This document shows, one piece after another, positions 1 through 3,589 of a stretch of 64,000 nt of DNA; positions within the stretch are counted from its first letter, which is position 1; every line of letters begins with the position of its first letter. Under the pieces are notes generated by a model, which saw only the letters and a list, made by a program, of their open reading frames with translations, was not told where the DNA came from and did no database searches. A program made the position numbers and the translations under genes. Location: contig OY997647.1 in NCBI GenBank assembly GCA_963921795.1, positions 52,681,646 to 52,745,645 on the forward strand, written 5' to 3'. Source of the DNA: Nannobrachium achirus. Taxonomy: Eukaryota > Chordata > Actinopteri > Myctophiformes > Myctophidae.

Positions 1-101
1 ATTCGAGCCTTGTGGTTTATTTTATAAATACAGGGTGAAAGGTAGAAAGAATCGAACTCAAACGCCCCGTTACTTCCTTCCCTATAGTATCGGGTGCTAC
101 A
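1..101 (+). repeat. End of the 5' LTR
   Basis: Identical over 101 bases to 3489-3589. It ends in GCTACA, matching the TGTAGC start of the downstream LTR in inverted orientation. The rest of this LTR lies outside the window, so its full length and the 5' target duplication cannot be seen. Confidence 0.9.
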
Positions 102-106
102 TAAAA

Positions 107-124
107 TGGAGGCACTACTGAGAT
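107..124 (+). promoter_or_regulatory. Primer-binding site, tRNA-Thr-like
   Basis: TGGAGGCACTACTGAGAT starts 5 bases after the LTR end. It begins with the TGG that pairs with a tRNA CCA end, and from memory it matches the complement of a vertebrate tRNA-Thr 3' end at about 15-16 of 18 positions (tRNA-Gln fits less well). The position is right for minus-strand priming. The tRNA identity is an inference. Confidence 0.55.
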
Positions 125-239
125 CCTAATTTTCCTTTCTACTACAAGCAATACTCAGCTAGTGAACAGACCACTACTGTATAATTTAAAAAAGGCTCTA
201 AAACCTTAAACCGCATCCCTAAAGAAAAGCAGCAAGACA

Positions 240-1739
240 ATGGTAGCTGAATCTGCTTGGACTGGGCAGGTAGTTGCTGCCATGGACACACAGATGTGCA
301 CTGGGCTAGTTTGCAACAGCACAAGCTACGGGCCCAGCAAATGCCCCTCTCATGTAGAGTCAGGGGGCATAGGAGACAGTAAAACAAATCTGATAGTCAA
401 CTATCTTCCTCAGTACATGACCAATGAGGAGCTGAAGGGCTTATTTGTGAGCATCGGCAGGATTGAGTCTTGTAAAGTAGTTAGAGACAGGATAACCGGA
501 CAGAGTCTAGGGTTTGGTTTCGTGAACTACGCAGACCCAAAAGATGCACAAACAGCCATCAGCACCTTTAATGGCCTGAGCCTTAAGCCCAAAACCATAA
601 AGGTCTCCTACGCCCGTCCCAGTTCGGCCTCTATCACAGATGCCAACTTGTACATCAGTGGCTTGCCCAAAACTATGACGCAGGAGGAAGTAGAGCAACT
701 TTTCTCCCAGTATGGACGCATCATTACCTGTCGCATTCTGGTGGACCAAGTAACCAGCGTCTCTAGAGGGGTGGGTTTCATCCGGTTTGACCGGCGAGTA
801 GAAGCCGAGGAGGCCATCAAGAGTGTGAATGGCCTGAAGCCTCCCGGTGCCACCGAGCCGATCACAGTGAAGTTTGCCAACAACCCCAGTCAGAAGAATA
901 GCAAATCGCTTTGCTCAAAGATGTACCAGGTCCCCAATGCGTGGTGTCCTGGGCCCCTCGCGCAGCAAGCACAGTGCTTCAGTGGGTTCTCACCCATGGC
1001 CCTCGAAGGGGTAACAAGTCTGGCGGGGATCAACATCCCAGGGTACACGGACACTGGCTGGTGCATATTCGTCTACAACCTGCCTCCGGATGCTGATGAC
1101 AACCTCCTGTGGCAGATGTTTGGACCCTTTGGTGCTGTCACCAATGTCAAGGTGATGCGAGACCTGACTACCAATAAGTGCAAGGGTTTTGGTTTCGTCA
1201 CCATGACTGACTACGATGAAGCCGCCGTAGCCGTCACTTGCTTGAATGGATGCCTCCTTGGAGACAGAGTTCTTCAAGTGTCATTCAAGACGAACAAAAG
1301 AGCACATGATAAACGGGTACGAGATCAAGTGTTGGAAGTAGGAGATCGAGTTTTGCTCCGAAACTTTGGATTAACTGGCAAACACAAGTTGCAGGATAAA
1401 TGGAGACCTGTGCCTTACATAGTTGTCAGTAAGATGCCAAATCTACCCGTGTATACCATAAGGCCTGAGAGAGGAACGGCCAAGGTGAAAACAGTCCACC
1501 GAAATCACCTGCTGCCAATTGGATACCTGGTTCGACTCCCAGTCGACACAGATGAACCAGAGCCTGCTCAAAAGACTGTGACTAGGTCACAAAGCAAACA
1601 GACAGTGACTCAGATGGAACAAAGTGATCCGAGATCTGAGTTACAACAAGATGTGGCATCAGACTCAGAGGATGAGGACCTGGACGTGTCTCAACCACGA
1701 GTTATGGATGAAGACCGTGAATTAGGGAATGAGTCTTGA
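240..1739 (+). CDS. elavl2-like: ELAV/Hu-like RNA-binding protein fused to a gypsy integrase C-terminus (499 aa)
   Basis: Residues 1-353 are an ELAV/Hu protein with three RRMs. RRM1 has LIVNYL (51-56) and LGFGFVNY (90-97), RRM2 has LYISGL (137-142) and RGVGFIRF (176-183), and RRM3 has IFVYNL (276-281) and KGFGFVTM (315-322). The N-terminal WTGQVVAAMDTQ, the hinge PGPLAQQAQ and the block TSLAGINIPG fit ELAVL2 (HuB) better than ELAVL1, 3 or 4. Host Hu proteins bind AU-rich RNA and regulate neuronal mRNA stability and splicing. The frame lacks all introns of the host gene, so it was taken up through a spliced RNA. From about residue 354 it continues into a gypsy integrase C-terminal module (VGDRVLLRN at 367-375, then VKTVHRNHLLPIG) and an acidic tail. 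It is open from ATG to stop. Whether the protein is made is unknown. The start was chosen because the upstream-of-RRM residues match the longer ELAVL2 isoform. Confidence 0.9.
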   Translation: MVAESAWTGQVVAAMDTQMCTGLVCNSTSYGPSKCPSHVESGGIGDSKTNLIVNYLPQYMTNEELKGLFVSIGRIESCKVVRDRITGQSLGFGFVNYADPKDAQTAISTFNGLSLKPKTIKVSYARPSSASITDANLYISGLPKTMTQEEVEQLFSQYGRIITCRILVDQVTSVSRGVGFIRFDRRVEAEEAIKSVNGLKPPGATEPITVKFANNPSQKNSKSLCSKMYQVPNAWCPGPLAQQAQCFSGFSPMALEGVTSLAGINIPGYTDTGWCIFVYNLPPDADDNLLWQMFGPFGAVTNVKVMRDLTTNKCKGFGFVTMTDYDEAAVAVTCLNGCLLGDRVLQVSFKTNKRAHDKRVRDQVLEVGDRVLLRNFGLTGKHKLQDKWRPVPYIVVSKMPNLPVYTIRPERGTAKVKTVHRNHLLPIGYLVRLPVDTDEPEPAQKTVTRSQSKQTVTQMEQSDPRSELQQDVASDSEDEDLDVSQPRVMDEDRELGNES

Positions 1740-2184
1740 CACGTCCTGAAACCCCTGTTCAGGACGTCCCTCCTGTGGTTGATGAGGCCCAAGCTGTACT
1801 TCCTCTAGACGAGGACATGGAAGATTCCACAGCTGTAGAACCTGCAGTCCCTGAAGTGGACCCTGTAGATGATGCAGTCTCCGTAGACCTGTGGTAAACA
1901 CAAGTCTAGAAGGGGGAGAAGTAATTGATAACGCTCAGTTACCTGTTGCGACTGAAGAGTCCCCACAGAGACTCCCAAGGAGGGAGAGAAGACCAGTTCA
2001 TAGGTTCAGTTATGATGAGTTGGGACGACCTTCCACTCAATCCTGGTCCATACTAAGTAAAGGAGCGCTTGTAGAGTGCAGTACCTATTTGGATCCAGAC
2101 CGTCTTTGTAACACTGTGTGGTGTCATCCCATGGCCAGTTGTCCTGATTGTACAACAAGACGGAAGAAGCTGCAGATGGGTTAA
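1740..2184 (+). pseudogene. Remnant of gypsy polyprotein C-terminal tail
   Basis: The stretch is rich in acidic and proline residues and ends with a basic segment (RLPRRERRPVHRFSYDELG) of the kind seen at the C-terminal end of fish gypsy polyproteins. It lies between the chimeric frame and the purine tract. It has no known function of its own and is treated as fossil element sequence. Confidence 0.55.
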
Positions 2185-2216
2185 TGCCATGTCATTTGAT
2201 GAGGACATCAAAATCT

Positions 2217-2230
2217 AAGAAGGGGGAGGG
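2217..2230 (+). promoter_or_regulatory. Polypurine tract of the LTR element
   Basis: AAGAAGGGGGAGGG directly abuts the TGTAGC start of the 3' LTR, as expected for the plus-strand primer of an LTR retroelement. Confidence 0.85.
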
Positions 2231-3589
2231 TGTAGCCCAGTGCTTATTTCATGCCCTTAGCCTTATTCTAAAAACAGAGTTCATGTCATACTAACACAGT
2301 TTGACCAAGTTAAAATGTATGCCTATAATAAATAGAAATGCTGAATAAATAGGTTTTGTAAAAAGACTTATGTTAAAAGGCATACAGTATATTTCATGGG
2401 TGTTTAAAGGGTTAATTTCATGGGAGACTGTGGGAGATAAAACCTTAACGAGTCACAGTGACCCAGTACTGATCAAAGCGTTTTCTGATCAAAGGGTAAA
2501 CTTGTTTGTTACCTAGGCAACTGAGTTTCAGGTTTATTGATGATGTATGCTGATTGGTGACTTCTCAATCAGTCCAGTGGGGAGAGAGGAGAGGGAATGA
2601 TTGATGGGCAGAATCACCTGTTGTATGATCTGACAGAGAAATGTTTGCAGTTTGCTGCTTGGTGGCTGTACAGTAGCTACTTTGTTCTTTTGTTGATTTA
2701 ACCTGAGTGTGTGAAGTATCAGTAAGTTTGTACAAGTGTGTGTTTGAGCTGAGGGGAAAGGTCAGTAGATTAATCTACCAGAGGACATCGCGACTGATTT
2801 TGCAGATTGTTTTGGGAGTATATTTCCTGCAGAAGGATTCTACTAGCCCCCTATCTGTTTCACCTCCGTCACACAACTTGTCATCCCATCACCAACTGTT
2901 CCCCAGAGCGAACAGGAACTGTGAGTAGGGCTTTCTGGACTTTTCACCGAAGAGAGGATTATAGTTTACAGTATCACCATTCACCACCAACTGTTCCCCA
3001 GAGCGAACAGAGACTTTGTGTAGCGGTTTCTCATCTGCTCATCTGGAGGATCCCATCGATCAGGCCTGCACCTTTTTTGTTTTGTGTGATTGTGTGCGTG
3101 CGAGTGTGGGCCCACTGAATATATTATTGAAGGTATTCTGTGAACATTTTATGTTTTGCTGAATTGAAGTAAGATCAAAGGGATTTTTACAAGAGGTATT
3201 TTGAGAAGGTTTGGGATTTGAGTTTTGACTTGGGTTTAGTGAAGTCAAGTTTGGGTTTTTCTGTGAAGGTAATCAAGGGACTATTCTGTAGATCTCTTAA
3301 TTTTGGATTTCATAAAAAGGCCTCAGGCCTAGTGGTTCATTTAAAAAGGTTTACCATTCAATTTCATGTTGTATGTCCATTTCATGTTTTATTTGTTTGA
3401 CATTTAGGGTTAAAACACTTTGAGTAAACTTTGATTACCCTTTAAAGTGTGGTCTGTTCATTTATTTAAAATAGGTCTGTGGTCTATTATTCGAGCCTTG
3501 TGGTTTATTTTATAAATACAGGGTGAAAGGTAGAAAGAATCGAACTCAAACGCCCCGTTACTTCCTTCCCTATAGTATCGGGTGCTACA
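2231..3589 (+). repeat. 3' LTR (1359 bp)
   Basis: Bounded by TGTAGC and GCTACA. The last 101 bases equal the 5' LTR end at 1-101. It is long for a gypsy LTR and holds several AATAAA-like motifs near 2325-2345. The ORFs seen in it are short and look incidental. Flanking sequence after it begins TTAGT, but the target duplication cannot be tested because the 5' flank is outside the window. Confidence 0.9.

What the first reader, a model, noticed from the sequence alone, without database searches (positions are those of the whole stretch)
1..3589. LTR retroelement that has captured an elavl2 cDNA
Between two gypsy-type LTRs, with primer site and polypurine tract in place, lies an intron-free ELAV/Hu gene with all three RRMs. 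Host gene capture by retroviruses is established (v-onc genes); capture of a neuronal RNA-binding protein by a Ty3/gypsy element is, to my knowledge, not described. The frame stays open over 499 codons and the visible LTR parts are identical, so the insertion is recent. An RNA-binding cargo could affect packaging, stability or neural or germline expression of element RNA; that part is inference.
Basis: partly seen in the sequence, partly recalled or inferred. Interest (0 to 1): 0.95.

Follow-up and report, generated by a model that had tools for sequence, protein, structure and literature searches.

The report
Jumping element carrying a neural gene
A fish retrotransposon carries, in place of most of its own genes, a copy of the host's RNA-binding gene elavl2; it has spread to at least three places in the genome while the RNA-binding domains stayed intact, as if the stolen gene is useful to it.

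Summary
Window 1-3589 is one copy of a non-autonomous Ty3/gypsy family: LTR, primer site, leader, intron-free elavl2, integrase tail, polypurine tract, LTR. Genome searches found three such copies on three contigs. Two have 648-codon ELAV-integrase frames, near-identical LTR pairs and 4-base target duplications; the window copy is cut to 499 codons by a frameshift. All three share one joint, so most likely one capture. The host's own elavl2 has canonical introns and an extra residue (EPAWTG, in 0 of 92 informative relatives) matched in the copies: the source was a spliced elavl2 mRNA of this lineage. Five relatives without ELAV share the integrase tail; ELAV copies are interleaved with them, which points to backbone exchange. 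Between the two ELAV lineages dN/dS is 0.295 (95% 0.17-0.51): 0.17 in RRMs, 0.79 in linkers. So this is not a fresh or neutral passenger, though the test rests on two lineages. The hinge has lost its arginines in all three copies. Best reading: a satellite-like element mobilised in trans, whose ELAV-integrase protein acts in the cytoplasm on element RNA. Structure, source and selection are measured; mobilisation and function are inferred.

The parts
1..101 (+). 3' end of the 5' LTR (the rest lies before the window)
   Evidence: identical to 3489-3589
107..124 (+). primer-binding-site-like sequence TGGAGGCACTACTGAGAT, 5 nt after the LTR
   Evidence: kept with one difference in the relatives aligned; tRNA identity not tested (a tRNA-Thr-like 3' end is recalled, not computed)
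102..227 (+). element leader, shared with relatives that lack ELAV
   Evidence: joint alignment; DNA matches within window 1-184
228..250 (+). stretch holding the 5' joint between leader and elavl2 exon 1 sequence; the start codon in use lies here
   Evidence: host exon 1 homology begins at about the second or third codon; the host sequence further upstream does not match the leader
240..1298 (+). captured elavl2 coding sequence, intron-free, without the alternative exon 6
384..623 (+). RRM1
639..881 (+). RRM2
882..1055 (+). hinge (nuclear-shuttling region in HuR); the 4 consensus arginines are lost
1056..1298 (+). RRM3
1288..1299 (+). 3' joint: 12 nt reached by the alignments from both sides (host elavl2 last exon up to 1299, relatives' integrases from 1288); not letter-for-letter identical today
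1299..1739 (+). Ty3/gypsy integrase C-terminal tail fused in frame to ELAV, up to the stop
1740..2184 (+). rest of the pol tail, out of frame in this copy (frameshift near 1735); in frame in L009 and L010
2217..2230 (+). polypurine tract AAGAAGGGGGAGGG
2231..3589 (+). 3' LTR, 1359 nt
   Evidence: 88-89% to the LTRs of L009 and L010

Best explanation
Measured here: an element made of LTRs, leader, intron-free elavl2 and integrase tail, with no room for gag, protease, RT and RNase H; three copies found, at least two of them independent recent insertions; elavl2 from this host's lineage; purifying selection centred on the RRMs. Inferred with good support: in a particle of a Ty3/gypsy family the reverse transcriptase switched template, at a short stretch of similarity on the 3' side, onto a spliced elavl2 mRNA with exon 6 skipped; later, LTRs and tail were exchanged with relatives that lack ELAV. 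Inferred with less support: the element is mobilised in trans by those relatives like a satellite, and the ELAV-integrase fusion protein, which has lost the hinge arginines found in host Elavl2, stays in the cytoplasm, binds U-rich element RNA and raises its stability, translation or entry into partner particles. That benefit in cis would explain why selection keeps the RRMs.
For: Three copies with the same joint. L009 and L010: LTR pairs differ at 1 of 1385 and 2 of 1399 sites, 4-nt target duplications TTTG and CAAT, no shared sequence in the 0.3-0.7 kb flanks held, uninterrupted 648-codon frames. Host elavl2 on C14 has GT-AG introns; the host reads EPAWTG, the copies ESAWTG, and 92 of 92 informative listed elavl2 (118 rows examined) read EPWTG. 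dN/dS window-L009 0.295 (bootstrap 0.17-0.51; 25 synonymous of 50 changes where 24% is the neutral share, P 4.6e-5); RRMs 0.174, linkers 0.794. Their dS of 0.107 is close to their LTR distance of 0.112. RNP motifs: window 2 of 45 residues changed, L009 four. No arginine left in the hinge of any of the three copies. Three fetched relatives have long open frames with RT/RNase H- and integrase-type matches and, over the LTR parts held, 0-2 differences. Exchange: window LTR is nearer relative L013 (0.078) than ELAV copy L009 (0.112); L009 tail is nearer relative L012 (0.022) than the window's tail (0.069).
Against: Only three copies, two of them 99.3% alike, so dN/dS rests on two lineages; on the L009 branch alone it is about 0.63 with 18 changes, and between L009 and L010 ELAV has 0 synonymous and 1 nonsynonymous change and the tail 1 and 3. 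The integrase tail also shows 0.34-0.375 between the window and the other copies, so constraint is not unique to ELAV (the tail may come from relatives where it is under selection). The RRM/linker contrast within the element is modest (P 0.038). Enrichment of TTT[AG]TTT in the LTR (5 against 1.5, P 0.008) is one of 25 tests; the four other U-rich patterns were not enriched there. No older broken ELAV copy appeared among the 115 candidates scored of 161, which is odd for an old cargo. Gag in the relatives was not tested by homology. No expression, binding or mobilisation data.
Confidence: 0.6

Rival explanations
1. Neutral passenger: ELAV was captured and is carried without function; open frames persist because copies are young.
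For: Few copies; linkers evolve near neutrally (dN/dS 0.79); the window copy already has a truncated fusion frame; L009 branch ratio 0.63.
Against: dN/dS 0.295 between two element lineages, P 4.6e-5, RRMs 0.174. Null model: 74 changes in 347 codons without a stop in 41-68 of 2000 neutral runs, RNP motifs changed 2 of 45 against about 9 expected; counting only the 52 changes that no listed relative shares, zero stops in 97-126 of 2000 runs, RNP changes as few as the 1 seen in 3-8 of 2000.
Confidence: 0.15
2. The fusion protein serves the host rather than the element, for example as a dominant-negative integrase or RNA competitor that restrains related elements, and host selection keeps it.
For: The integrase tail is fused in frame and shows dN/dS 0.34-0.375; relatives look recently active.
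Against: Separate young insertions rather than one old conserved locus; the window copy has lost the frame of about half of the pol tail but keeps ELAV.
Confidence: 0.12
3. The cassette came by horizontal transfer from another fish, which would explain host-ELAV dS of 0.46-0.54 and the lack of old copies.
For: dS to the host gene is large against LTR distances of 0.06-0.11 to the relatives; no old ELAV copies among the candidates scored.
Against: The extra residue in EPAWTG is shared with this host's elavl2 and absent from 92 of 92 informative listed proteins, some species listed several times. L009 and L010, though not the window copy, keep the LNC state of this host, found in 22 of 109 informative listed proteins, all from acanthomorph fish (the grouping is recalled). 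Backbone exchange with resident relatives explains the LTR distances.
Confidence: 0.1
4. Assembly chimera or ordinary processed pseudogene beside an LTR element.
For: none found
Against: Same joint at three places, two of them with both LTRs, target duplications and unrelated flanks; ELAV at most 79% identical to any listed elavl2.
Confidence: 0.01

Closest known systems
LTR-mediated retroposition (Tan et al. 2016, known to me here only through passages of PMC5408686; the paper itself is not held)
   Same: Host mRNA packaged with an LTR element, template switching at microsimilarity, chimera between LTRs
   Different: Here the chimera went on to multiply, with selection on the captured protein and signs of backbone exchange
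Orchid Ty3/gypsy elements with an AlkB m6A demethylase (PMC9289625; abstract and two sections)
   Same: Ty3/gypsy family that acquired a host protein acting on RNA and kept it
   Different: There an extra ORF in large (25 kb) plant elements; here a vertebrate, a three-RRM Hu protein in place of gag and most of pol, fused to the integrase tail
Bdelloid rotifer LTR elements with additional ORF3s (PMC5408684; abstract)
   Same: Enzyme-type ORFs captured by LTR elements
   Different: Extra ORF3 beside gag and pol, enzymes rather than an RRM protein
Defective transducing retroviruses with v-onc genes (recalled; host gene transduction by retroviruses and LTR retrotransposons is named in passages of PMC6431247)
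   Same: Host cDNA replaces viral genes, often fused to a viral frame, and a helper is needed
   Different: Ty3/gypsy, in the germ line, no oncogene; helper dependence not tested here
Maize Bs1 (named in a passage of PMC5408686; details recalled)
   Same: LTR element with pieces of host genes
   Different: Other host genes, plant; selection on the cargo not addressed in what I read

Membership tests
Ty3/gypsy LTR retroelement | paired LTRs with TG...CA ends and target-site duplication | tested here: met
   (duplications in L009 and L010; the window copy's 5' side is outside the window)
Ty3/gypsy LTR retroelement | primer site and polypurine tract in place | tested here: met
   which tRNA primes was not tested
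Ty3/gypsy LTR retroelement | gypsy-type pol homology | tested here: met
   integrase tail only
Ty3/gypsy LTR retroelement | own gag, protease, RT and RNase H (autonomy) | tested here: not met
   by elimination: leader, ELAV and tail, each assigned by alignment, fill the internal region; no separate RT search of the window was run
ELAV/Hu protein family | three RRMs with family-level score | tested here: met
ELAV/Hu protein family | basic hinge between RRM2 and RRM3 (shuttling region in HuR) | tested here: not met
   4 of 4 consensus arginines lost, none left in any of three copies; the hinge's role from passages of PMC3676826
ELAV/Hu protein family | binding of U-rich RNA | not testable with these tools
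   RNP motifs nearly unchanged
LTR-mediated retrocopy | intron loss relative to the parent gene | tested here: met
   host introns; none in the copies
LTR-mediated retrocopy | microhomology at the joints | tested here: inconclusive
   3' joint: alignments from both sides overlap by 12 nt, with mismatches today, shared Asn-Lys; the 5' joint is unresolved within about 20 nt
Helper-dependent transducing element | partner with matching cis sequences and pol in the same genome | tested here: met
   three of five relatives fetched; gag not tested by homology
Helper-dependent transducing element | actual mobilisation by the partner | not tested

The most novel reading that the evidence does not exclude
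A vertebrate LTR element has evolved into a satellite that carries its own host-derived RNA-binding protein, a Hu protein re-tuned for the cytoplasm and fused to an integrase tail, which works in cis on element RNA to win packaging or survival against the complete relatives it lives off.
Probability: 0.4. Interest if true: 0.9.

Novelty: new variant of a known kind. Interest (0 to 1): 0.82.

Why it matters
In the cases I read of, captured host sequence is a retrocopy or an extra ORF beside gag and pol. Here the host gene and the donor element family sit in one genome, the joints can be mapped, and selection on the cargo can be measured. It makes testable whether a transposable element can recruit a regulator of host mRNA to control its own RNA, and how a non-autonomous vertebrate element competes with its complete relatives. 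I found no ELAV capture in print: full-text searches (0 papers; 7 papers; 2; 5), judged by title and abstract start in the listing; the held open-access library only.

Tried and rejected
A fused ELAV-integrase protein in public databases: the integrase tail matches none of the 120 listed ELAV proteins (of 3438 matches), and ELAV matches none of the 37 integrase-tail proteins; the two top rows, P0001 and P0002, repeat part of ELAV and are not fusions. Viral contigs, prokaryote genomes and phages: no relative. A divergent host paralogue as the source: rejected, since the copies share the extra exon-1 residue of the host's own conserved elavl2. The idea that other intron-free ELAV frames of the genome belong to the same element: two of seven were fetched; they are nearer to elavl1, and the 5 kb held shows none of these LTRs. 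U-rich motifs in the LTR: weak. Finding the host species through a retroelement-like frame of the window: no match. Capture in place followed by divergence at this locus: rejected, 16-24 LTR differences expected over 101 nt, 0 seen (gene conversion between LTRs not excluded). The neutral simulations were made before host DNA was at hand; the direct dN/dS carries more weight.
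Full report
What is in the window. The 3' LTR runs from 2231 to 3589 with TGTAGC/GCTACA ends, preceded by a polypurine tract (2217-2230). Window 1-101 is the end of the 5' LTR, followed at 107 by a primer-site-like sequence. Between them an ORF of 499 codons (240-1739) scores 485 bits as ELAV/Hu (cut-off 279), has three RRM stretches, and aligns at 78% over 348 residues with Sander elavl2 and 77% over 355 with Alosa elavl2 without an intron. From about 1288 the sequence is the C-terminal tail of a Ty3/gypsy integrase (64% over 139 aa to P0121), continued in another frame from 1888, so the pol tail is frameshifted in this copy. 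The tail matches none of the 120 listed ELAV proteins and ELAV none of the 37 listed integrase-tail proteins, so the fusion was not met in the protein collection.

Before the genome could be searched. Against the majority of 118 listed elavl2 proteins the window differs at 79 of 353 residues, 57 of them to residues seen in none of the 118. A tree puts it inside ray-finned-fish elavl2 (99/96 support) on a branch of 0.46 where the median end branch is 0.028; the tool warns that the place of so long a branch is unsure. Neutral simulations (347 codons, 74 changes) gave zero stops in 41-68 of 2000 runs and about 9 changes in RNP motifs where 2 of 45 are seen; with every change that any listed relative shares put down to the host, 52 changes remain, zero stops in 97-126 of 2000 runs, and as few RNP changes as the 1 seen in 3-8 of 2000.

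Copies in the genome. The genome (1.66 Gb, 564 contigs) has 36 matches to window 1-600, of which two besides the window reach through leader and ELAV at 90% (C6, C20). A protein search with ELAV scored 115 of 161 candidates and listed 67 matches: these three copies at 93-100%; the others, at 85% identity or less, include the host elavl2 exons and a separate group of intron-free ELAV frames, and otherwise look like further elavl and RRM genes, which I did not inspect one by one. All such counts are lower bounds by the tool's own word. The C6 and C20 elements (L009, L010) have LTR pairs that differ at 1 of 1385 and 2 of 1399 sites, 4-nt target duplications, no shared sequence in the flanks held (0.3-0.7 kb), and one uninterrupted 648-codon ELAV-integrase frame each. 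They are 99.3% alike over the element. So the family is real, has moved recently, and the window copy is its truncated member.

Parents. A search with the tail gave 11 matches: the three ELAV copies, five elements that match from window 1288 on (C3, C13, C11, C14, C18), two partial ones, and the last exon of the host elavl2 gene, which matches up to window 1299. The 12 bases 1288-1299 are therefore reached from both sides, though they are not identical letter for letter today; the shared Asn-Lys there is seen in 29 of 34 readable integrases (37 examined) and in 94 of 120 ELAV proteins. Three of the five relatives were fetched (L012-L014); they have long open frames (769 and 927, 1798, and 1956 codons, stop to stop), match pol proteins whose listed Pfam domains include PF17919, PF17917 and PF00665 (RT/RNase H and integrase core by recall), and in the parts of LTR pairs held show 2 of 375, 0 of 335 and 0 of 278 differences. 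Gag was not tested by homology. They share the leader to just before the ELAV start. The host gene lies on C14 with canonical GT-AG introns and a separate alternative exon 6 that the captured copy lacks. The host protein reads EPAWTG in exon 1 where 92 of 92 informative listed proteins (118 rows examined, some species several times) read EPWTG; the copies read ESAWTG. The source was thus most likely a spliced elavl2 mRNA of this lineage.

Selection. Window against L009: 25 synonymous and 25 nonsynonymous changes in 353 codons, dS 0.107, dN 0.032, ratio 0.295 (bootstrap 0.17-0.51), P 4.6e-5 against neutrality. In the RRMs the ratio is 0.174 (20 and 12), in the linkers 0.794 (5 and 13), contrast P 0.038. 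Against the host gene the ratio is 0.208 for the window and 0.251 for L009; RRMs 0.113 and 0.124, linkers 0.695 and 0.861; these include the host's own synonymous changes and so lean low. The integrase tail gives 0.344-0.375 between the window and the other two; between L009 and L010 there is 1 nonsynonymous change in ELAV and 1 synonymous and 3 nonsynonymous in the tail. Polarised by the host, the window branch has 15 synonymous and 10 nonsynonymous changes, the L009 branch 6 and 12, with 6 ambiguous codons dropped. So the case for selection rests on one comparison of two lineages.

Old cargo, young and mixed backbones. Host-element dS is 0.46-0.54, yet LTRs of ELAV copies differ from those of the three relatives by only 0.06-0.11, and the window and L009 are each nearer to a relative than to each other in LTR (0.078 and 0.063 to L013, 0.112 between them) and tail (window-L014 0.040, L009-L012 0.022, between them 0.069). 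With one shared joint this points to exchange of backbone with relatives after the capture; I did not run a formal recombination test. It also means the ELAV changes did not accrue at this locus: 16-24 LTR differences would be expected over 101 nt, 0 are seen, barring conversion between LTRs.

How it may work. The element keeps cis sequences (LTRs, primer site, leader, polypurine tract) and has no room for gag, protease, RT and RNase H, so mobilisation would have to come from relatives; this is inference from anatomy. The kept RRMs with nearly unchanged RNP motifs argue that RNA binding is what selection sees. The four consensus arginines of the hinge are gone, and no arginine is left there in any of the three copies; in HuR this hinge holds the shuttling sequence, and R217 is methylated (passages of PMC3676826), so a cytoplasmic protein is expected (inference). 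The LTR has five TTT[AG]TTT sites against 1.5 expected, but this is one of 25 tests. Yeast Ty3 needs RNA-processing-body proteins for its RNA level and particle assembly (abstract of PMC4589538), which shows that such a dependence is possible in this superfamily. Benefit to the element in cis is my preferred reading; a host-level restraint function is the main functional rival.

Known ground. Template switching between LTR-element RNA and host mRNA in particles is described (PMC5408686 passages). Captured domains in Ty3/gypsy and other LTR elements are known, most closely the orchid AlkB demethylase (PMC9289625) and rotifer ORF3s (PMC5408684 abstract). I found no ELAV capture in the held library (by listing). 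I therefore file it as a new variant of a known kind.

Noticed in passing
L036 (C5) 1833-2921 and L037 (C9, minus strand); also C22:51591712-51592602, C14:2231553-2232554, C13:11508695-11509561, C16:55162985-55164064, C21:28167062-28167592: A separate group of intron-free ELAV-like frames (241-496 codons; the C21 one has a stop in its second match). The two fetched have three RRM-like stretches, are nearer to elavl1, show none of the gypsy LTRs in the 5 kb held, and are 69% alike with dN/dS 0.118 at dS 1.7, so they look like old functional retrogenes.
   Followed up: partly
C2:73530912-73531347 of the same genome: Leader match (window 5-137) directly followed by a tail match (window 1929-2230, 98%): apparently another internally deleted derivative of the same element family, without ELAV.
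   Followed up: no
window 39324-41342 and 42999-44999: A near-palindrome of about 2-kb arms, 95-100% complementary by piece, around a 1.66-kb centre with an 84-nt tandem array.
   Followed up: no
window 10417-11967 and 14559-15107: Retroelement-like open frames between 187-nt inverted repeats 9969-10155 / 16378-16564; no Pfam match, and no protein match for the one searched.
   Followed up: partly
window 19755-63988, 20 places: Twenty copies of a short palindromic repeat (AAAAATAGCAGATCTACAAGCTC...), possibly a non-autonomous DNA element (family D12).
   Followed up: no
window 2327 and 2344: Two AATAAA signals only about 100 nt into the LTR, which would make U3 short and the transcribed R-U5 part long.
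   Followed up: no
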